From Bacillota bacterium (GTDB lineage Bacteria; Bacillota; Clostridia; Peptostreptococcales; Anaerovoracaceae): a DNA stretch of 64,000 nt. The position numbers were made by a program, and so were the translations under genes. The notes beneath the pieces were generated by a model. The model ran no database searches and was not told the DNA's origin. It saw only the letters and a program-made list of their open reading frames with translations. Where the stretch lies: the NCBI GenBank assembly GCA_017433375.1, contig JAFRHG010000003.1, forward strand, positions 1-64,000. The letters are read 5' to 3'. Within the stretch, counting starts at the first letter, position 1; the number at the start of each line of letters is the position of its first letter. Of this stretch, positions 1,137 to 18,385 are shown piece after piece.

Positions 1137-2741
1137 ATGAAAAAGACAGATCTGACAAAGGAACAACTGATGCGGATGAGCCGCGAAGAACTGGTCAGTG
1201 CATACTTGGAAAGTCTTGAGGAAAGCCAGCGCCAGCAGGAACAGATCGACCGTCTCACAGAGGACTTTAACCAGATGAAAGCCATGCTTTTCAGTTCAAA
1301 GAGCGAAAAGAAAAAGGCTGATGAGGTCGATGGGCAGATCAGCATGGAGTTCAACGAAGCTGAGGCCGCTGCCCCGAAAGACGAAGTTGAGGAGCAGATC
1401 ACGATCAAAGAGCACACCCGCTCTGTGAAGAAGGCCGGCAAGAAGGAGGCGGATCTTTCAAAGCTTCCCAGAGAGGTCGTGACTCACAGCATCCCAGAAG
1501 AAAAACTAAAAGAGATTTTCCCTAATGGCTGGAAACAGCTACCCGATGAGATCTACACGAATGTAGAATACATTCCGGCAAAATTCATAGCAAAGGAACA
1601 TCACATAGAAGTATACTGCTCAAAAAACGATGACAGGATAGTCCGCGCGGATCATCCAAAGGAGCTTCTTGATGGCAGCATCGTTACCCCGTCACTTCTT
1701 GCGGGGATCATGAACAACAAATATGTGAATGCCCTGCCTCTTTACAGGATGGAGCAGGAATTCGAAAGAAACGACATACCAATAACCAGACAGAACATGG
1801 CCGGGTGGATCATCAAATGCACAGAGCGGTATTTGTCACTTCTTTATGACCGGATGAAGGTCGAACTTCTTGGCCACAGCGTGGTTCACGCAGATGAAAC
1901 ACCGCTTCTCGTATCTAAGGACGGCAGATCCGCAGGATCGAAAAGCTACATGTGGGTTTACAGGAGCAATGTGCTGGATGACAGGCCGATTGTGGTATAC
2001 GAATATCAAAAGACAAGGAAGACAGATCATCCGAAGGAGTTCCTGAAAGGATTTGAAGGCTTTCTGGTGACCGACGGATATGAGGTATATCACAAACTAG
2101 CAAGAGAGCGATCCGGTGAGATCAAGGTTGCCGGATGCTGGGTACATCTGAAGAGAAAATATACCGATGCGATCAAAGCCATGGGCAAGGCCGGATCTGA
2201 CACAGTTGCCGGGACCCTGTCCGGCCAGGCTATCGAAAAGATCCAGAAGATATTCCACAAAGACAACGAACTGAACATATTAGACAGCGAATCCAGGTTG
2301 AAACGGCGAAAAGAAGAAATCAAGCCTCTTGTCGACGCATTCTTTAAGTGGGTAAAAGAACATCGAGGCGATGTCACCCGCAAGTCTGCATGTGGAAGAG
2401 CCTTTACATACACTGTGGAACAGGAGCACTATCTCAGAGCGTTTCTTGAGGACGGTGATGTCCCAATGGATAACAATGCTGCAGAGAGAGCCATCCGGCC
2501 ATTCTGTATTGGCAAGAAAAACTGGGTCATGAGCGATACCGTTCACGGTGCTGAAAGCAGTGCCGTCGTCTACAGCATCACGGAGACAGCCAAGGCGAAT
2601 GATCTCAAACCACTTGAATATCTGAATCACCTTCTAAGCGAGATCCCGAAGCATATGGACGATACTGATTCATCCTTCATAGGCGACCTGCTCCCTTGGT
2701 CGGACAAGATACCAGAGGAATGCAGAAAACTGAAAACATGA
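1137..2741 (+). CDS. tnpC: IS66 family transposase TnpC
   Basis: A 534-residue DDE transposase, normal length for the family. An N-terminal coiled coil (about residues 1-60, rich in E, Q, R) is followed by an IS66 zinc/helix-turn-helix region and the catalytic core: first Asp in VVHADETPLLV (about 250), second in FLVTDGYEVYH (about 312), and the Glu in MDNNAAERAIR (about 455). All three acidic residues are present, so the enzyme looks active. A weak extended -10 (TGGTATACT, 1123-1130) lies just upstream, giving tnpC a possible promoter of its own. The stop is followed by a hairpin terminator. Confidence 0.95.
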   Translation: MKKTDLTKEQLMRMSREELVSAYLESLEESQRQQEQIDRLTEDFNQMKAMLFSSKSEKKKADEVDGQISMEFNEAEAAAPKDEVEEQITIKEHTRSVKKAGKKEADLSKLPREVVTHSIPEEKLKEIFPNGWKQLPDEIYTNVEYIPAKFIAKEHHIEVYCSKNDDRIVRADHPKELLDGSIVTPSLLAGIMNNKYVNALPLYRMEQEFERNDIPITRQNMAGWIIKCTERYLSLLYDRMKVELLGHSVVHADETPLLVSKDGRSAGSKSYMWVYRSNVLDDRPIVVYEYQKTRKTDHPKEFLKGFEGFLVTDGYEVYHKLARERSGEIKVAGCWVHLKRKYTDAIKAMGKAGSDTVAGTLSGQAIEKIQKIFHKDNELNILDSESRLKRRKEEIKPLVDAFFKWVKEHRGDVTRKSACGRAFTYTVEQEHYLRAFLEDGDVPMDNNAAERAIRPFCIGKKNWVMSDTVHGAESSAVVYSITETAKANDLKPLEYLNHLLSEIPKHMDDTDSSFIGDLLPWSDKIPEECRKLKT

Positions 2742-3174: not shown

Positions 3175-4407
3175 ATGTCTTATATAGAGCGTGCAATTAC
3201 GAATGTATTAATAGACCGGGTATCTTCGAGCAAATGTCTGCTTTTAACAGGAGCAAGACAGGTAGGGAAGTCAACAATAATAAAGCATGTGTTTCCGGAT
3301 TATAATATCGCCAACTTTGACGACCGGCTGACTAGGCTTCAGGCAAGAGAAGAACCAAGGCTTTTCCTTTTGAACAATCCCAGACCTCTGTTTATCGATG
3401 AAGTTCAGAAAGAAAGCAGTATTCTTGAGGAAATAAAACTGATCGTTGACGGTTCTGACACAAGAGGAGATTTCATCTTATCGGGGTCACAAAAACTGGA
3501 GCTGATGAAAGGAATGAGTGAATCTCTTGCTGGAAGGATTTCTATTGTGGAACTCACAGGTCTGTCACTGCGAGAAATAAACGAGGTTCCATTTTATAGC
3601 CACTTTGTACCGACGGAAGAGTATATTCGGGAAAGAGAAAAGGCTATCGTCGGGTACTCTGATATCTGGGAGTTCATTCATAGAGGATCTTATCCTGAAC
3701 TGTATGATATCGATAGGGATTGGCAGGATTTTTATTCCTCATATGTTTCCACTTATCTCGAGAGGGATATCAATGAACTGATTGCGGCGGACAGTCTGAC
3801 TTTTACAAAGTTTATGACTTCTGTAGCCGCCAGAACAGGTGAAATGCTTAATTATGCAAGTATAGCAAGCGAAGTCGGAGTAAGTGAGCCAACGATCAAA
3901 ACTTGGATATCTATTCTTGAACGCACCGGAATCGTATATATCCTTCAGCCATATAGTTCCAGTGCTCTTAACAGGGTTATTAGAACTCCTAAGATTTATT
4001 TCAGAGACACCGGGCTTGCCTGTTACCTGACTAGGTGGCTCACTGCAGAAGCCTTAAAGAATTCTGCAGTAGCGGGGAATATGTTTGAGACCTTTGTGGT
4101 TTCAGAAATATTGAAAACCTATAGTAATGAGGGAAGGGACTACAGATTCAATATTTTCTATTACAGAGGCAAAGATAAAAGGGCATCCGGAGAAAACGAA
4201 ATCGATCTGGTCATTGAGGAAAACGGCATGTTGTATCCTGTCGAGATCAAAATGACGGGCAATCCAAAATCAAATATGGCATCTGCTAATCAGATTCTTG
4301 ACAAGATACCTGACAAGAAACGCGGAATGGGAGTTATTCTGTGTATGATAGACAGAAAAACATATCTTAGAGATAATCTGGTAGCCTTGCCAATAGAATA
4401 TATTTAG
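3175..4407 (+). CDS. AAA ATPase with DUF4143 domain
   Basis: The 410-residue protein has an N-terminal AAA_14 domain with Walker A GARQVGKST (residues 27-35) and a Walker B-like PLFIDEVQ (about 76-83), then a sensor-type LSGSQKLEL (about 101). The second half, with a helix-turn-helix-like region (VGVSEPTIKTWI) and a C-terminal EIDLVIEENG...YPVEIK motif typical of restriction-like nuclease folds, is DUF4143. Function in the family is unknown; such genes are frequent, mobile and multi-copy in gut anaerobes. Start supported by GGAGG at 3163-3167. Lower GC than the downstream core genes. It stands alone under the repeat-bearing promoter. Confidence 0.9.
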   Translation: MSYIERAITNVLIDRVSSSKCLLLTGARQVGKSTIIKHVFPDYNIANFDDRLTRLQAREEPRLFLLNNPRPLFIDEVQKESSILEEIKLIVDGSDTRGDFILSGSQKLELMKGMSESLAGRISIVELTGLSLREINEVPFYSHFVPTEEYIREREKAIVGYSDIWEFIHRGSYPELYDIDRDWQDFYSSYVSTYLERDINELIAADSLTFTKFMTSVAARTGEMLNYASIASEVGVSEPTIKTWISILERTGIVYILQPYSSSALNRVIRTPKIYFRDTGLACYLTRWLTAEALKNSAVAGNMFETFVVSEILKTYSNEGRDYRFNIFYYRGKDKRASGENEIDLVIEENGMLYPVEIKMTGNPKSNMASANQILDKIPDKKRGMGVILCMIDRKTYLRDNLVALPIEYI

Positions 4408-4913: not shown

Positions 4914-5873
4914 ATGAAACCATTCAAAGGAACACCAACGGACTATTCCCTTAAGAGGAACTGGCTGTCGAAGCCGGACGATCCGGTCAAGCCGGTGGAT
5001 CTGGTATACCTGTATCCGTCAAGCTGCATGGATCCATTCGCTGACGTAATATGCCTGGTTGACAACAAAAGCATGCGTTCAAGCGCGAAGCGCAACTGTA
5101 CCCAGCAGGCTGCGGCTTTCGAAGAGATCGCCAACATATATGCTCCCTTCTGGCGGCAGGTAAGCGCTCTCAAGCTCCAAACGCTGAGTTTTGAAGAAGT
5201 CGACGAAGCGGAGTGGGCAGAACCGAGAACAGACGTATATGCCGCGTTGGATTACTATTTTGAACACCTGAATCAGGGACGGCCGTATTTTCTTGCCGGC
5301 CACTCACAGGGGTCCAGGCTAAGTTATATGGTGTTATCCGAGTATATGAGGGAGCATCCTGAACGCTACAGGAATATGATCGCCGCTTACTGCCTTGGCG
5401 ATTCCCTGACGAAGCAGTATCTGGAAGAGAATCCCCATGTGAAGGCGGCACAGGCAGCCGATGATACCGGCGTTGTGATCTCATGGAATACCGAGGGGCC
5501 GGAAAACAAAGGACACGAATCACTGGTGATCGCACCGGGTGCCATATCGATCAATCCACTGAACTGGAAGACAGACGACACCCCGGCCTCCTCAGAGGAG
5601 AATCTGGGTACCTTTATGCCCCATCTGCTGAGATCCGGCCTGAAAAAGCTTCCCGTTAAAGCTGACGCCGTATTGGATCTTGAACGGGGCACCGTAGTGG
5701 TCACCGAGCCAAGGCTGTCGAAATGTGCCATTTCGAAGATCCCCGGGTTCCAACAGGCCGCAGCAGTATTTGGTCCGGCAAGCTACCACGGATGTGATTA
5801 TTCATTCTTCTTCCTGAACATCCGGGAAAACGCCCGCATGCGATGGGAAACCTGGTGTAAGGAGATGGCATGA
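4914..5873 (+). CDS. DUF3089 family alpha/beta hydrolase-like protein
   Basis: The 320-residue protein matches DUF3089 proteins: an N-terminal DYSLKRNWLSKP, then VDLVYLYPSS, and a serine-hydrolase nucleophile elbow FLAGHSQGS with Ser at about residue 131. A late His in MPHLLRS or YHGCDYSFF could complete a triad. No signal peptide is seen from this start, so it is probably cytoplasmic; substrate unknown. The longer open frame to 4776 includes the HELFH fragment of the broken peptidase, which is not part of this gene. The ATG at 4914 has GAAAGGTGA upstream. Two terminators follow. Confidence 0.75.
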   Translation: MKPFKGTPTDYSLKRNWLSKPDDPVKPVDLVYLYPSSCMDPFADVICLVDNKSMRSSAKRNCTQQAAAFEEIANIYAPFWRQVSALKLQTLSFEEVDEAEWAEPRTDVYAALDYYFEHLNQGRPYFLAGHSQGSRLSYMVLSEYMREHPERYRNMIAAYCLGDSLTKQYLEENPHVKAAQAADDTGVVISWNTEGPENKGHESLVIAPGAISINPLNWKTDDTPASSEENLGTFMPHLLRSGLKKLPVKADAVLDLERGTVVVTEPRLSKCAISKIPGFQQAAAVFGPASYHGCDYSFFFLNIRENARMRWETWCKEMA

Positions 5874-5889
5874 TTGTCCTTTCTGGAGA

Positions 5890-5922
5890 AGCGGCGCATC
5901 AGAGATGATGTGCCGCTCTTTT
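5890..5922 (+). terminator. Terminator after the DUF3089 gene
   Basis: AGCGGCGCATCA pairs (with small mismatches) with TGATGTGCCGCT, followed by CTTTTTC. Confidence 0.75.
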
Positions 5923-5923
5923 T

Positions 5924-5958
5924 CCTCACCACCTGTCATGGCGGTGAGGAGCTTTTTT
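5924..5958 (+). terminator. Second terminator-like hairpin
   Basis: CCTCACC pairs with GGTGAGG around a 12-base loop and is followed by AGCTTTTTT. It abuts the first terminator. Confidence 0.65.
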
Positions 5959-5959
5959 A

Positions 5960-6409
5960 TGGGGTGTTCAAAGTTAATTGAGGTCTGGAGTTGGGGGATT
6001 TTGCCGTTTCACAATAAAACGCGGGTTTCGGCATAATGCCGATGTATGTGGGATGAATGAAATTGTGAGTATGCAGAGGTGCAGTGTATAGTTACAGAAA
6101 AATACAGAAATGATGAGGCGTTCGACTGTCTCAGTATGTCAAAAGCCCCGTTTTCTACCGATTCGGCATACGGGCAAGTAATGTTCACTATGCTGATTCG
6201 TTGTCTGATGGCCAATTCGGCAAACTTTTTGATTCTCTATGCAGGTGGGCCGTCAGCGGCCCCGCGGTTTATGTCCTGTCGAGACACGGATGATTCAGAA
6301 TGAACCCTTGAAATTATCCAGAAATCATAAGGGAACGGGTTGGCGGAGGCCGGCGTTGCCTTTGCACGGCCGGTCAAGCAAAGGCAATCCTCATTGCCGC
6401 AGAAATCTG
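5960..6409. other. Gene-free stretch with IS66 right-end remnant and decamer inverted repeat
   Basis: No supported gene. At 6271-6292 the sequence ATGTCCTGTCGAGACACGGA plus TG repeats, with one mismatch, the right-end region of IS66 copy 1 (240-261), so an IS copy once ended here. At 6356-6365 and 6378-6387 two copies of the window-wide decamer face each other (TTGCCTTTGC, 12-base gap, GCAAAGGCAA). TCGGCAT-A-ATGCCGA near 6029 is a small palindrome. Confidence 0.5.
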
Positions 6410-6469
6410 TTGACGGAAGCGAAAAAAACGACTGTAATAGTATTGGGATTTAGATTAGTCGAATGGAGG
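6410..6469 (+). promoter_or_regulatory. Promoter with third 33-bp repeat copy
   Basis: TTGACG (6410-6415), a 17-bp gap and TGTAAT (6433-6438) form a likely promoter. The -10 lies inside 6429-6461, a 33-bp sequence starting CGACT and ending TTAGTCG that matches the two copies upstream of the DUF4143 gene. The match continues into the ribosome binding site (GAATGGAGG). Confidence 0.65.
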
Positions 6470-6478
6470 CTCTATTTG

Positions 6479-7378
6479 ATGAACCGGACAATAAGCATTT
6501 TAATTAGTATATGTTTCCTTCTGATCCTGTGCAGCTGCAGCGCAGAAGAACCGGGCGACAGGGATGCTGAAGAAGCAAATGTGTATAAGCTCGAAACGGT
6601 GCATGAGGTCAACGGCAGGCAGGGCGTCTGCGCAGAAGGGGACAGTTACTGGGTCAGCGGTTCTACGACGCTGACAAAATATGACCGGAAATGGAATGTG
6701 GTTGCGGAAAACAAAGATCCCTTCGAGGGATATGAGCTGGAAGTCAATCACATTGGTGATATTGACGTTTATCAGAACGAGCTTTATCTCGGCGTAGAGT
6801 ACTTTATGGACGGCGAAGGAAAAAACATCCAGGTCGCGGTCTATGACGGTGACACCCTGGAATTGAAAAGGGTCTTTCCTTTCCGTCCGGATACGGGACA
6901 GCTGGAATGCAGCGGAATAGCCGTGGACCCGGATTCCCGCACGGTCTACCTGTCATCCTGGATCGCTGATGAGTCCAGCAGTTATCTCTATATGTACGAT
7001 CTTGACACCGGCGAGTACAAGGGGAAACTGAAGATGGAACCTCAGCCGGAGTGGATCCAGGGAGTCGCCTGCTATAACGGGGATCTGTATATAACATGTG
7101 ACGACGGGGATGCGGATGACGATGAGCCGGATCACATGTATCGAATCGAGGTCGGCGATGACAAGGAAACAGGCGCGGTCTTTCTGGAAAAGATCTTTGA
7201 CGACGTGAAACGGCAGGGTGAGGTCGAGGGACTGACCTTTGACAAACAGCAGAAAACCTTTCTGCTGCTGTACAATCGGGGCGCAAAGATCGTGGCGGGC
7301 ATGCCGACGGGCTTCTATAGCGGATACGATCACGAGATCCATGAGGTCTTTGTATATCGGATAAAAAGCTGGGAATGA
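6479..7378 (+). CDS. Lipoprotein with probable beta-propeller fold
   Basis: From the ATG at 6479, GGAGG nine bases upstream, the 299-residue product has a lipoprotein signal (ISILISICFLLILCSCS; lipidated Cys near residue 19). The mature part repeats blade-like strands: YDGDTLELKRVFPF, SGIAVDPDSRTVYLSSW, YMYDLDTGEYKGKL, QGVACYNGDLYITCDDG and VEGLTFDKQQKTFLLLYN. Such patterns occur in SMP-30/SdiA-regulated-like beta-propellers. An Asp-rich stretch (DDGDADDDEPD) could bind Ca2+. Anchored outside the membrane; ligand unknown. The open frame extends upstream to 6239, but that part covers the promoter and is not coding. Confidence 0.7.
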   Translation: MNRTISILISICFLLILCSCSAEEPGDRDAEEANVYKLETVHEVNGRQGVCAEGDSYWVSGSTTLTKYDRKWNVVAENKDPFEGYELEVNHIGDIDVYQNELYLGVEYFMDGEGKNIQVAVYDGDTLELKRVFPFRPDTGQLECSGIAVDPDSRTVYLSSWIADESSSYLYMYDLDTGEYKGKLKMEPQPEWIQGVACYNGDLYITCDDGDADDDEPDHMYRIEVGDDKETGAVFLEKIFDDVKRQGEVEGLTFDKQQKTFLLLYNRGAKIVAGMPTGFYSGYDHEIHEVFVYRIKSWE

Positions 7379-7384
7379 GCGGTG

Positions 7385-7393
7385 TGGTATAAT
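7385..7393 (+). promoter_or_regulatory. Extended -10 promoter for the CARF-HEPN gene
   Basis: TGTGGTATAAT carries a consensus TATAAT (7388-7393) with the TG extension, just after the lipoprotein stop. No good -35 is visible, as is common for extended -10 promoters. It lies about 60 bp ahead of the CARF-HEPN start. Confidence 0.6.
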
Positions 7394-7454
7394 AGTCCGA
7401 CAGGATGTGAATAAAAAGGCAACGAATTATGGAGAACTCAGGAGGAACAAGACG

Positions 7455-9305
7455 ATGGCTCACAAGATTCTTTTGACATCATTAAGCGCAATGGAAACGG
7501 ATCTGCCTGTGCGGTATTTTTCCGTTCGGAATGAAAGCGGATCCGACTACTTTGATGTGCTTCTGGACGCGGAGGCCGGTATCAAAACCGTGCTGTCCCG
7601 GCATGACATTGATGAGATCATTGTCATCGGCGCCGCCGGCAGCCATGACGAGGGGGACGATCTGGGACCCGTCTCCATCAAAAACGGAAGCGCCGCCAGT
7701 TCTTCGGACAAACCCCTTTCCACCTATGGCCTGCTTCTGCAGCGGATCGCCCGGTTTGCCGGCGGGCAGGCGGAGAACGGGATGGAAAAAGAGGAAAGCC
7801 TGCCCGGGGAAGCGCAGGAGAAGCTGGTCCGCTTTATCCAGGACTTCCGGGAGAGCAATCCGGAACTGAAGACCATAGAACCCAATCGGCTGTTTGACGC
7901 GCTGGCCCGGAACGACCAGATCTGTGACAGCTTTTGGAAGGCAGTCTTTGAGGCCTGCCCGGAACTCAGCGATGATCCGGCAGCCAGTAAGCAATGGGTA
8001 AGGAAATACCTGTATACAGAGCTTGAGCCTTCCCTGAAGCCCGGAATCCTGCAGGAAAACGGGGAAGTCAGCCTCAGTTTCGTACCGGAAGCCGAGATCG
8101 ATGACAGCGGCAAGTGGGTCGATAACATGATGGAGATGAATAAGTCCGTCGTGAAAGACGAAGAGGAGACCGACCTGTACATTACGCTGAACAGCGATGA
8201 TGCCGCGGACACATTCATCCTCCTGAACATGCTGGACATCCTGGTCTCCATGCCGGAAAGCGGCGTTCACCTGAAGAAAATCTACACGATACGCAATATG
8301 CAGAGGCATATGGCCGGGATCATACGGGATGATACGGAAGGCTTCGGCCTCACGGAACTGTTCCACGCGATCCGCGCATTTCTGAATTACGGCAGGGCGG
8401 ATATGATCGTGGACATCTGGAAAAGGAGCGGAGAAAGCAACGAGAGCGTGGCGGCCATGATCGAAGCCATGCGCAAAGTTGACGTCGGCCTTTCCATGTG
8501 CAATCCGCCGGAGGTGGAGGAGGGCATCCTCCGTCTGCGGGATCTTTTCGGGAGCGAAAAATTCTGGCGGGAATCCGGCTACTATGGCATGCTGTTCACC
8601 CTGATCGCGGAAAGCATCCGGGAAGATTACGGCGTGCTCCTGGAGGGTGACGGCGATATCAACTTTATCGAACTGGTCAAATGGGCCTATCGCCATCAGT
8701 TCTATCAGCAGACCCTGACCGTGATCGAGTCTGACACCCCGGATAATCTGGTGAGATCCGGGATATTCTATTACTGCGATGATGAGAATAAAGTGGAACA
8801 GATCACGCGCCTGTTTGCAGAGCAGCGGTTGGGACTGAAGCCCTATGAATTCTATAAGATGGATCAGATCGAGTATTATTTCATAAAGAACTATGACCGC
8901 GGGAGAACCAGAGGCAGGGGCTCCAGGGGCGAGGATCCGCAGCAGGTGTACGCCGCCCTGAGGACCCAGTCCGTCGAGAACACGGATCCCTCTCTGATCA
9001 CGGGCTATACCGCATGCGACAGCCTGGAAACCCTGCAGAACATCCTTTACGCCTATTACCGCGTCGGATATGTAAGAAATAAGATCAGCCACGCTGACGC
9101 CCATGTCATGGCCAAAAAGAACCAGGCGGCATCCGACAGCGATGAAAGCCCCGCCCTGGTCTGGATGAAGGACAGTATCGAAGCCTTTATCGACGGCTAT
9201 GAAAAAGCCATGGCGGAAGTGGAGGATAAGGAACCCAACGTTGTGATCATTTCCGGCAATGATGTCCGGAAAATCGCAGAGAGCATGAGACATTCTCGTC
9301 GCTGA
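7455..9305 (+). CDS. Stand-alone CARF-HEPN protein, Csx1/TM1812-like putative RNase
   Basis: The 616-residue protein looks like type III CRISPR ancillary ribonucleases of the Csx1/TM1812 group. The N-terminus (HKILLTSLSAMETDLPVRYF, then YFDVLLDAEAGIKTVL and IDEIIVIGAAGS) fits the CARF Rossmann core that senses cyclic oligoadenylate. About residues 235-325 carry the second half of that family pattern (IRDDTEGFGLTELFHAIRAF-NYG). The C-terminal helical region has VRNKISHA at about 540-547, a canonical HEPN RNxxxH catalytic motif. The usual DxTHG motif is degenerate (YITLNSDD). ATG at 7455 has AGGAGG at 7440-7445; the upstream ATG at 7407 lacks a site. No cas gene, cyclase or CRISPR array is in the window. 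Family placement is by pattern only. Confidence 0.65.
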   Translation: MAHKILLTSLSAMETDLPVRYFSVRNESGSDYFDVLLDAEAGIKTVLSRHDIDEIIVIGAAGSHDEGDDLGPVSIKNGSAASSSDKPLSTYGLLLQRIARFAGGQAENGMEKEESLPGEAQEKLVRFIQDFRESNPELKTIEPNRLFDALARNDQICDSFWKAVFEACPELSDDPAASKQWVRKYLYTELEPSLKPGILQENGEVSLSFVPEAEIDDSGKWVDNMMEMNKSVVKDEEETDLYITLNSDDAADTFILLNMLDILVSMPESGVHLKKIYTIRNMQRHMAGIIRDDTEGFGLTELFHAIRAFLNYGRADMIVDIWKRSGESNESVAAMIEAMRKVDVGLSMCNPPEVEEGILRLRDLFGSEKFWRESGYYGMLFTLIAESIREDYGVLLEGDGDINFIELVKWAYRHQFYQQTLTVIESDTPDNLVRSGIFYYCDDENKVEQITRLFAEQRLGLKPYEFYKMDQIEYYFIKNYDRGRTRGRGSRGEDPQQVYAALRTQSVENTDPSLITGYTACDSLETLQNILYAYYRVGYVRNKISHADAHVMAKKNQAASDSDESPALVWMKDSIEAFIDGYEKAMAEVEDKEPNVVIISGNDVRKIAESMRHSRR

Positions 9306-14228: not shown

Positions 14229-14375
14229 ATGAAGCGTGAGTTTCCGCTGAAGGTGACAATAGCCCTCATCCCGGTGGCGATAGCGTGTATGGTGTTCGGC
14301 ATCTATCGCGGGGAGGTGGCCACTGTCCTGTCAAAAGCCATCAATATCTGCATGGAGTGCATCGGTCTTGGCTAA
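14229..14375 (+). CDS. CD1871A-type small CXXC membrane peptide
   Basis: A 48-residue peptide: a basic N-terminus, one membrane helix (VTIALIPVAIACMVFGIYRG), then EVATVLSKAINICMECIGLG with a C-terminal CxxC. The pattern fits the small CD1871A family CXXC proteins of Clostridia. The paired cysteines suggest thiol redox or metal handling. Its stop overlaps the TTG start of the next gene, so translation is coupled. Together with the 4Fe-4S membrane protein and the TlpA-like lipoprotein it forms a redox operon. Start has GGGGGAGAA upstream. Confidence 0.75.
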   Translation: MKREFPLKVTIALIPVAIACMVFGIYRGEVATVLSKAINICMECIGLG

Positions 14376-15282
14376 CCATCCAAACGCTCTGCGCAAATGT
14401 GTCCAGGCGGGATGGGGAATCCTGACGAACGCCTATATTAAAGGATTTCTGCCCGGTTTGCCGCCCATCTATCAGGGAAATCTGAAACAGGTCTGTGTGC
14501 CTGGCATGAACTGCTATTCCTGCCCCGGCGCCCTGGGGTCCTGTCCCATCGGCGCCATGCAGGCGGTCTTTGACGGAAGACACAGGCAGTTTGCCTTTTA
14601 CGTGGTCGGCTATGCAGCCCTCATCGGACTGGTGGTGGGGCGGTTCGTCTGCGGCTGGCTCTGCCTCTTCGGGCTGATTCAGGAACTGCTGTATAAGATC
14701 CCGACGCCGAAACTGACGATCCCGGCGCCGGCGGATAAGCCGCTGCGGTATCTGAAATATCTGATCCTGCTCGTTATGGTGTTCCTTCTGCCCTTCATCG
14801 TACGGTCACAGTACGGGGTAGGAGAACCCTTTTTCTGCAAGTACGTCTGTCCCGTGGGGACGCTGGAGGGCGGCATACCCCTCGTCCTGCTGAACGAGGC
14901 GCTGCGCGCCACGCTGGGATGGCTGTTCAGGTGGAAGTTCTTCCTGCTCATCATGTGTGTGGTGGCATCGGTCTTCATCTACCGGCCCTTCTGCAAATAT
15001 CTCTGTCCCCTCGGTGCCTTCTACGGGTTGTTCCAGAAGGTCAGCCTGGTGAGGATGCGCGTGGACGAGCACGTCTGTGTGGATTGCGGCAAGTGCGCCC
15101 GGGCATGCAAGATGAACGTAGACCCCCACAAGACACCCAACAGCAATGAATGTATCCGGTGCAGGGAGTGTGTGAACGCCTGCCCGATGCACGCGCTGTC
15201 CATGGGGATCGGAGCGTTGAAACCCTCCGCCGGAGAAGAAGCAGGGGAGGATGCTCCCGCTCCATCGGCGGAGGCACAATAG
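14368..15282 (+). CDS. Membrane 4Fe-4S protein (NapH/CcoG-like)
   Basis: The 304-residue protein has several membrane helices and multiple Cys motifs: CYSCPGALGSCPIGA, CGWLCLFG, KYVCPVGT, KYLCPLGA, and two ferredoxin-type clusters near the C-terminus (CVDCGKCARACKM and CIRCRECVNACPM). This matches the NapH/CcoG/YccM-like electron-transfer proteins, which move electrons across or along the membrane. It begins at a TTG overlapping the preceding stop. The tail is Ala/Glu/Pro-rich. With the neighbouring TlpA-like lipoprotein, it may pass electrons to an extracytoplasmic disulfide. Confidence 0.85.
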   Translation: MANHPNALRKCVQAGWGILTNAYIKGFLPGLPPIYQGNLKQVCVPGMNCYSCPGALGSCPIGAMQAVFDGRHRQFAFYVVGYAALIGLVVGRFVCGWLCLFGLIQELLYKIPTPKLTIPAPADKPLRYLKYLILLVMVFLLPFIVRSQYGVGEPFFCKYVCPVGTLEGGIPLVLLNEALRATLGWLFRWKFFLLIMCVVASVFIYRPFCKYLCPLGAFYGLFQKVSLVRMRVDEHVCVDCGKCARACKMNVDPHKTPNSNECIRCRECVNACPMHALSMGIGALKPSAGEEAGEDAPAPSAEAQ

Positions 15283-16921: not shown

Positions 16922-18385
16922 CTAGTCCCGGCCGGCCTTCATCTCCTGCTTGCGCATATACATGGCACGGTCGGCCCGGCGGAAGGTTCCATCCGGTGTG
17001 CCGTCCCGGTCGGCATCGAAGACAGCATAGCCGACGGAGGCGGATACACGTTCCCATGGCTCCAGGTCGGCGTTCTGGCTGACAGTAACCATAGCGCAGT
17101 TGAAGCGAGTGATCAGATCGTCGATGTTTTCCAAATCCCGTCCCTTCAGGATGACGGTGAATTCATCTCCGCCGATCCGGTAGACCGGGGAGTGGGTAAA
17201 GGTGGTGCAGACGATCCGGCACAGTTCTTTGATGGCGATGTCGCCTTTTTCGTGGCCGTAAGTGTCGTTGATCTTCTTCAGTTCGTTAAGGTCGATGACC
17301 GCCAGTCCGAAATTCGGGTCTTCGTCGACGGACTCGGCCAGGGCCTTCATGGCGTCGTCATAGGAGTACTTGTTCTGAACGCCGGTCAGGGCATCCCTCG
17401 TGGCGATCTCACTCATCTTGGTCACTTCTTGGCGGGATTCGGCGAGTTCGTTTGTGGTCTTAAGCAGGTTAGTGATCTTGTCATTCAGATCCCACTCCAT
17501 CCTCTTCATGGATGTGGCCAGGTTCTCGATCTCGTCGTGGGTATGGATCTCCAGCTTTTCGAAATGGTTATGGTTGCTGACATCGTCATCACTGCGGTAG
17601 TTCGTGGCCGCCTGGGACAGCTGGTTGATGGGCCGTACCAGAGCCCGGTTCACCAGGATGACGGAGAAGAGGATAACGATGGCGGTAAGGAGAATCTGCA
17701 GCCCGATCAGGATGGCCAGCACCCGGTGGCGCCAGGAAGCGATGTCCGTCATGGAAACGTCGACCATGGCGTATCCGACAACTTCACCCTCTGAACTGTA
17801 GACCGGGGTTCCGGAGGTGGCCAGATGTCCGTATTCCTCCGTGTTCGTCGTGTAGGTCGGGAATCCGATGGTGGGATCCTCCAGAAGACGCTGGTTCTGC
17901 TCGTACAGGGGATCGAAGCATCCGATGGGACAGGGGTCCTCCTCGGCCGCGTCTACCAGGTAGACGAACTTGGCCGAATCCTTTTCCACGAAAGAAGTGT
18001 AGACGCAGTCTACATCGTTGGTGTCCTGGATCGTCCGAAGCTGTCGGAGGACTTTCTTGTAATCCGGCGTCTGGGACAGAGCCTCAAAGTTGGACAGGTA
18101 CTCGTAGAATTCATCCGAACCCCAGTCATCGCTGGAGACACGCTCCGCAGAAGGGAGCGCATCGTAGATCTTTTCTGTTTCGGCCTGGAGCCGGGCAAGG
18201 GCTTTCGCGTCCACAACGGCCGCCGCCGTGCGGGAGACATTCGTCGCCTCGGTTTTGTAATTGTTCTCGATGATGTTCGAGACAGATCTGACGCTGACGA
18301 TAATGGTCACCACGTTCAGCACTAGGGCGATAACAATGATCATCAGCACAACTTTGGTTCTTAATGAATGGATCATAATATTCAC
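16922..18385 (-). CDS. Membrane diguanylate cyclase (GGDEF)
   Basis: The 487-residue protein starts with a membrane helix (about 10-30), then an extracytoplasmic sensor region (about 35-225) and a second helix (about 225-250). A HAMP-like linker follows, and a GGDEF domain from about 330 with the intact signature RIGGDEF, so c-di-GMP synthesis is expected. No EAL domain and no RxxD inhibition site are obvious. The start is a GTG at 18385, with an ATG nine bases on; neither has a strong ribosome binding site. It faces the SpoIIE-like gene, with a shared 100-bp upstream region. Confidence 0.9.
   Translation of the reverse strand: MNIMIHSLRTKVVLMIIVIALVLNVVTIIVSVRSVSNIIENNYKTEATNVSRTAAAVVDAKALARLQAETEKIYDALPSAERVSSDDWGSDEFYEYLSNFEALSQTPDYKKVLRQLRTIQDTNDVDCVYTSFVEKDSAKFVYLVDAAEEDPCPIGCFDPLYEQNQRLLEDPTIGFPTYTTNTEEYGHLATSGTPVYSSEGEVVGYAMVDVSMTDIASWRHRVLAILIGLQILLTAIVILFSVILVNRALVRPINQLSQAATNYRSDDDVSNHNHFEKLEIHTHDEIENLATSMKRMEWDLNDKITNLLKTTNELAESRQEVTKMSEIATRDALTGVQNKYSYDDAMKALAESVDEDPNFGLAVIDLNELKKINDTYGHEKGDIAIKELCRIVCTTFTHSPVYRIGGDEFTVILKGRDLENIDDLITRFNCAMVTVSQNADLEPWERVSASVGYAVFDADRDGTPDGTFRRADRAMYMRKQEMKAGRD

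What the first reader, a model, noticed from the sequence alone, without database searches (positions are those of the whole stretch)
7455..9305. Stand-alone CARF-HEPN ribonuclease-like gene without a CRISPR locus
The protein pairs a CARF-like N-terminus with a C-terminal HEPN motif (RNKISH at about residue 541, RNxxxH). Such proteins are normally switched on by cyclic oligoadenylate from Cas10 in type III CRISPR. Here it sits between a lipoprotein and a CAP-domain gene, under its own extended -10 promoter, with no cas gene, array or cyclase within 64 kb. It may answer to a signal from another source, belong to a distant CRISPR locus, or be a new defence or stress RNase. The DxTHG motif is degenerate, which hints at a changed ligand.
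Basis: partly seen in the sequence, partly recalled or inferred. Interest (0 to 1): 0.75.

Follow-up and report, generated by a model that had tools for sequence, protein, structure and literature searches.

The report
CRISPR-free relative of Csx1 RNases
This gene encodes a predicted RNA-cutting enzyme whose kin normally act on orders from a CRISPR system, but its branch of the family is not tied to that system, has lost the usual signal-binding motif, and in many relatives sits next to a drug-pump-type transporter gene, so it probably answers a different signal.

Summary
In detail: 7455-9305 encodes an intact 616-aa protein with RNKISH at 541-546. PADLOC CARF-HEPN profiles match it (2.7e-20) and all 70 aligned homologues. 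The orphan is part of a family: 14 of 296 genomes of its taxonomic family and 80 fetched loci. Of 57 distinct carrier genomes searched, 4 hold a Cas10, none on the gene's contig; mCpol 0 of 57; CD-NTase 3 of 57. Control: of 7 more distant relatives found by the same profile, 6 lie near a Cas10 and carry DITHS or DMTGG. In the family this motif is DMQG-like in the deep branch and lost in the window (LNSDD), while R-N-H is invariant (70 of 70). A MATE transporter gene adjoins 23 of 80 loci, always same strand; one MATE subfamily occurs in 4 of 296 genomes, each time beside this gene. The window copy is in a MATE-less branch. Best reading: a ligand-gated HEPN RNase that left type III CRISPR and changed ligand. 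Fold, ligand and activity are untested.

The parts
7385..7393 (+). extended -10-like TGGTATAAT
   Evidence: sequence; TGGTATAAT in L050 and other TATAAT-like boxes upstream of some, not all, of 15 close relatives; consensus match only
7440..7445 (+). Shine-Dalgarno-like AGGAGG, 9 nt before ATG 7455
   Evidence: sequence
7455..9305 (+). CARF-HEPN protein, 616 aa (P0001)
   Evidence: dN/dS 0.18 against L044
7455..7652 (+). residues 1-66, first half of the CARF-like region (ILLTSL, IDEIIVIG)
   Evidence: alignments only; no structure available
7767..8069 (+). residues about 105-205, insertion present in family members and mostly absent from 6 Cas10-linked relatives
   Evidence: alignment A3; edges approximate
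8175..8210 (+). residues 241-252 LYITLNSDDAAD, at the place of the CARF DxTHG/DxTGG ligand motif
9075..9092 (+). RNKISH, HEPN catalytic motif RNxxxH (residues 541-546)

Best explanation
The gene encodes a ligand-gated HEPN ribonuclease related to type III CRISPR Csx1-type effectors, which now works without Cas10. SHOWN: homology to CARF2-class CARF-HEPN proteins; invariant HEPN motif; purifying selection on both halves; no association with Cas10, mCpol or CD-NTases in the genomes searched; loss of the canonical ligand motif. INFERRED: it acts as a dimer whose two HEPN motifs form one composite active site; a small ligand other than the usual cyclic oligoadenylate, made or taken up by the cell under phage or chemical stress, binds the CARF-like region and switches on RNA cleavage, giving dormancy or abortive infection. 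In relatives a neighbouring MATE exporter probably handles the same stress, for example by pumping out the activating molecule, as a substitute for a ring nuclease; the window's branch does without an adjacent one.
For: CARF-HEPN profiles match 70 of 70 members. RNxxxH invariant in 70 of 70. dN/dS 0.06-0.30 in 11 of 13 pairs tested, window-L044 0.18; of the other two, L107-L108 gave 0.42 on almost no differences and L120-L123 was saturated. Cas10: at a bar of 45 bits 2 of 57 distinct carriers against 11 of 296 family genomes, that is, background; with two divergent ones found on checking, 4 of 57, none on the gene's contig. mCpol 0 of 57; SMODS 5 of 64 rows = 3 of 57 distinct. Positive control: 6 of 7 more distant relatives lie within about 7 kb of a Cas10 (all 7 named CARF-HEPN by PADLOC); CRISPR-like arrays in 4 of the 8 regions fetched and in no family locus held. 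Ligand motif DITHS/DMTGG in 6 of 6 of those, DMQG-like or lost in the family. Family rows group apart from the 6 Cas10-linked rows (SH-aLRT 99, long branches). MATE adjacency 23 of 80; MATE-I 4 of 296, all beside the gene.
Against: No structure could be predicted, so a Rossmann-fold CARF and a HEPN dimer rest on sequence profiles that align mainly from residue 208 on; the first 200 residues are assigned by alignment alone. No ligand, activity or phenotype is known. 4 of 57 carriers do have a Cas10. The own genome is 89% complete and most carriers are metagenome assemblies, so single absences are weak. PF22335 is near its limit for divergent Cas10 (a Cas10 in the control G369 scored only 27-31 bits), so others may be missed. 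The MATE link does not apply to the window's own 28-row branch (0 of 28). A CARF with an altered motif may still bind cyclic oligoadenylate.
Confidence: 0.55

Rival explanations
1. It is still an ordinary type III effector working in trans with a Cas10 missed because the genome is incomplete.
For: Same protein class as Csx1; genome 89% complete; 4 of 57 carriers have a Cas10 elsewhere in the genome.
Against: At an equal bar of 45 bits carriers are at the background rate (2 of 57 against 11 of 296); no family locus held shows an array; 6 of 6 Cas10-linked relatives keep the ligand motif, this family does not; control relatives do sit near Cas10.
Confidence: 0.08
2. A housekeeping stress RNase gated by a general nucleotide messenger such as c-di-GMP or c-di-AMP.
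For: A GGDEF protein lies 7.6 kb away (16925-18385); in L078 a GGDEF-EAL protein is directly upstream (51 bp); GGDEF proteins are frequent in carriers; such messengers would need no dedicated synthase.
Against: I know of this direct link at L078 only (neighbours of the other loci were not all classified); GGDEF genes are common; the family is patchy (14 of 296 genomes), unlike a housekeeping factor.
Confidence: 0.2
3. The CARF-like half no longer senses a ligand; the RNase is held in check by a protein partner, toxin-antitoxin style.
For: Loss of the ligand motif in the window branch; HEPN toxins with protein antitoxins are known (recalled).
Against: The N-terminal half is under purifying selection (dN/dS 0.19 for residues 1-300, window-L044) with invariant residues E40, L47 and R97; beside the window branch I saw no recurrent small partner gene except in the near-identical pair L048/L049.
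Confidence: 0.12
4. The MATE adjacency is accidental and tells nothing of function.
For: MATE genes are numerous (6 ORFs in the own genome); the loci are related and the link clusters on the tree, so the 23 are not independent; the window branch lacks it; CARF and MATE trees agree only weakly.
Against: 23 of 80 loci, all same strand, 19 of the 23 overlapping or within 45 bp; two separate MATE clades, upstream and downstream orders; MATE-I in 4 of 296 genomes, always beside this gene (those 4 are of one genus).
Confidence: 0.1

Closest known systems
Csx1/Csm6 type III CRISPR ancillary RNases (CARF2--CARF_HEPN of PADLOC)
   Same: Sequence homology, CARF-like N-terminus, C-terminal RNxxxH HEPN
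   Different: No Cas10, array or type III locus beside the gene; DxTHG/DxTGG motif lost; about 100-residue insertion
Orphan CARF genes noted in print (PMC4012209 and PMC13148439, passages read)
   Same: CARF genes not linked to CRISPR-Cas are reported in each CARF family, and orphan Csx15 are known
   Different: Here a coherent family with its own motif change and, in part, a dedicated MATE neighbour; searches for CARF with MATE gave no paper or nothing relevant in the 15 listed
CBASS and mCpol-type cyclic-nucleotide defence
   Same: Ligand-gated effector idea (recalled)
   Different: No linked CD-NTase or mCpol

Membership tests
Csx1/Csm6 CARF-HEPN RNase (protein class) | match to CARF-HEPN profiles | tested here: met
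   70 of 70 members; window 2.7e-20
Csx1/Csm6 CARF-HEPN RNase (protein class) | HEPN RNxxxH | tested here: met
   invariant in 70 of 70
Csx1/Csm6 CARF-HEPN RNase (protein class) | CARF ligand motif DxTHG or DxTGG (name recalled) | tested here: not met
   LNSDDAAD in window; DMQG-like in deep members; DITHS/DMTGG in 6 of 6 Cas10-linked relatives
Csx1/Csm6 CARF-HEPN RNase (protein class) | CARF Rossmann fold and HEPN dimer | not testable with these tools
   structure prediction switched off
type III CRISPR ancillary effector | Cas10 in the locus or genome | tested here: not met
   own genome no match; 4 of 57 distinct carriers have a Cas10, none on the gene's contig
type III CRISPR ancillary effector | RNase activated by cyclic oligoadenylate | not testable with these tools
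   biochemistry needed
CBASS | CD-NTase beside the effector | tested here: not met
   SMODS in 5 of 64 rows, 3 of 57 distinct genomes; none in own genome
mCpol system | mCpol gene | tested here: not met
   0 of 57; its control rang in 1 of 14 genomes, below the cut-off

The most novel reading that the evidence does not exclude
A CRISPR-independent two-gene system, MATE exporter plus CARF-HEPN RNase: the CARF-like region senses a small molecule, the RNase imposes dormancy, and the exporter removes the molecule and resets the switch, doing by efflux what ring nucleases do by hydrolysis. The window gene is a derived solo member with a further changed ligand.
Probability: 0.25. Interest if true: 0.85.

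Novelty: new variant of a known kind. Interest (0 to 1): 0.6.

Why it matters
It gives a whole, sampled family in which a CRISPR signalling effector runs without CRISPR, with a concrete motif change and a genetic partner to test. It could show what CARF-type sensors detect outside type III immunity, and whether efflux can serve as an off-switch for a toxic RNase.

Tried and rejected
Pfam, NCBIfam and PDB sequence searches gave no homologue. This raised my first count of carriers with Cas10 from 2 to 4 of 57, and I moved the trans-acting rival from 0.07 to 0.08. Plasmids, phages and viral contigs: no relative found. Congruence of the CARF and MATE trees is weak (Mantel r 0.28, 10 of 2000 permutations as high, 19 pairs) and I do not lean on it. 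My first neighbour count missed the MATE of L089/G280 because of a spurious ORF; one search replaces it. In one search some own-genome MATE ORFs were read in the wrong frame; one search replaces that tree, though own_L148 remains doubtful. Whole proteins L102, L103, L106, L108, L112 and L116, some with C-terminal extensions, have no Pfam match. Carboxylesterase, ABC, YitT and phosphotransacetylase genes recur beside some loci (clusters, one or two representatives of each named) but less often than MATE.

Rows dropped: A2 holds the window and 69 of the 80 loci. Left out: L054, L058, L060, L079, L083, L097, L098, L113, L115 (cut or split) and L067, L069 (an antisense ORF was called instead; not examined further). 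Cas10 was sought in the genomes of 50 of the 80 loci besides the 14 family carriers. Seven genomes occur in both sets, judged by equal contig lengths, hence 57 distinct. PADLOC scanned 57 of the 97 window ORFs of 100 aa or more. The bar of 1e-100 for MATE-I was set after seeing the pairwise scores. Of the flanking sequence, several loci hold little, so 23 of 80 is a lower bound.

Full report
Observation. The ORF at 7455-9305 is intact, begins with ATG nine bases after AGGAGG, and carries RNKISH at residues 541-546. PADLOC CARF2--CARF_HEPN, Csx1 and Csx1/Csm6 profiles match it at 2.7e-20 to 7e-16, over residues 208-591. Pfam, NCBIfam and PDB sequences give no meaningful match. No CRISPR-like array is in the window and no cas family among 57 of 97 ORFs scanned. 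A GGDEF protein at 16925-18385 corrects the claim of no cyclase.

A family, not an orphan. The protein has relatives in 14 of 296 genomes of its taxonomic family, the own genome included, in 6 of 92 genera. A scan of genome contigs found 93 relatives, of which 80 loci were kept; by their titles they are mostly Clostridia-type assemblies, many from animal guts, with some labelled Spirochaetales, Erysipelotrichaceae or Solobacterium, Atopobiaceae and Flexilinea. An alignment of the window and 69 of those loci shows R541, N542 and H546 invariant, along with E40, L47, R97, K478 and others. All 70 match CARF-HEPN profiles. No relative was found in the plasmid, phage or viral collections. Of the 13 pairs tested, dN/dS is 0.06-0.30 in 11, 0.42 for L107-L108 (almost identical) and not computable for L120-L123 (saturated); window against L044 gives 0.18, with 0.19 and 0.17 for the two halves. 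So both halves are kept by selection.

Cas10. In the 296 family genomes the Cas10 palm domain is above 45 bits in 11 genomes and over the curated cut-off in 20; none of the 14 carriers is among either. Among 50 further carrier genomes 7 pass the cut-off and two are above 45 bits, G343 and G345; Pfam shows the first as Csm1 and the second with the Cas10 palm only. I then checked every other match: 4 by Pfam (all GGDEF) and 31 by two profiles built here, of which 28 are GGDEF-like and 3 Cas10-like, in G310, G316 and again G343. Seven genomes are in both sets, so 4 of 57 distinct carriers have a Cas10. In all four its contig differs in length from that of the gene, so none is beside it. mCpol is in 0 of 57 and a SMODS CD-NTase domain in 3 of 57 distinct genomes.

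Positive control. The family profile run over 391 genomes of the class hit 9: the own genome, one more family member (G651) and 7 distant relatives. Six of those 7 lie on the same contig as a Cas10 palm match within about 7 kb, among genes that look like RAMP proteins by eye (no profile was run on them); the Cas10 of one of them, G369, scores only 27-31 bits. The seventh, G533, is on an 8.6-kb contig and its weak match lies on another contig. PADLOC names all 7 as CARF-HEPN or Csx1. CRISPR-like repeats occur in four of the eight regions fetched and in none of the family loci held. The search therefore sees a Cas10 link where one exists.

Changed sensor. In 6 of 6 Cas10-linked proteins aligned, the second CARF strand ends in DITHS or DMTGG. 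In deep family members it reads DMQG or similar (DIQG, DLQG, DMHG, DLRG), and in the window's branch forms such as SLNSDD, with the aspartate, threonine and glycines gone. The family also carries an insertion at about residues 105-205 that those proteins mostly lack. A tree separates the family from the 6 Cas10-linked rows (SH-aLRT 99), with a warning about long branches.

MATE partner. Beside 23 of 80 loci lies a MATE transporter gene within 240 bp on the same strand: 10 best matching one clade (MATE-I, upstream), 10 a second (MATE-II, upstream) and 3 MATE-II downstream; 19 of the 23 overlap or lie within 45 bp; three more MATE-II genes lie 2.4-4.4 kb away, and 6 other MATE genes lie further off. 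Pfam was run on one representative, L076, and gives MatE; the rest are assigned by similarity. On the 70-row tree 22 rows carry the link, none in the window's 28-row branch and 22 of the other 42; 9 changes are needed against at least 13 in 200 shuffles, so the link is clustered but arose or was lost several times. In 296 family genomes a MATE-I query at E<=1e-100 finds 4 genes, all in carriers and all within about 60 bp of CARF-HEPN (up to 5 candidates per genome were scored); 4 of 4 falling among 14 of 296 has probability 3e-6, though all four are of one genus. The own genome has 6 MATE ORFs, none placed in either clade, and the 64-kb window has no match to the MATE queries.

Mechanism. Shown: a conserved, selected HEPN motif on a CARF-class protein, not associated with Cas10, with a lost ligand motif. 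Inferred: dimeric RNase, gated by a non-standard small ligand, causing dormancy; in relatives the transporter handles the same molecule or stress. That CARF proteins outside CRISPR exist is in print (PMC4012209, PMC13148439 and PMC12669027, passages read; the last speaks of the abundance of CARF homologues outside CRISPR-Cas). The main CARF classification of 2020 was not held, so it may already mention such families. Literature searches for CARF with HEPN, MATE and efflux, CARF with MATE family and transporter, orphan Csx1/Csm6 and CARF with HEPN and Lachnospiraceae showed no report of this family in the listings I saw.

Limits. Genomes are mostly incomplete assemblies. The ligand, the RNase activity and any role in defence are untested.

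Noticed in passing
window 6239-7378; L186 about 5772-6563; L056 about 14287-15084: The lipoprotein-like gene upstream of the window CARF-HEPN has close homologues (65-72% identity) near CARF-HEPN genes in two other loci, one of them from a distant branch.
   Followed up: partly
window 3175-4407: AAA_14/DUF4143 ATPase 3 kb upstream; one window protein matches PADLOC candidate defence family PDC-S01 at 1e-98, probably this one (not checked).
   Followed up: no
window 1137-2741: IS66-family transposase near the locus.
   Followed up: no
L061, L064, L065, L060, L098: A gene cluster whose representative L065 is a carboxylesterase adjoins CARF-HEPN in five loci of the window's wider branch (L060 and L098 are not in the tree).
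   Followed up: partly
L102, L107, L108, L074: ABC exporter-like genes directly upstream of CARF-HEPN, in place of MATE (cluster; L108 and L074 named by Pfam).
   Followed up: partly
L181, L182, L184, L185: Cas10-linked relatives are Csx1 fused to a Csx20 domain (PADLOC CARF_HEPN_CSX20).
   Followed up: no
L058, L079, L097, L098, L115: Several family copies are split or reduced; whether decay or assembly error was not examined.
   Followed up: no
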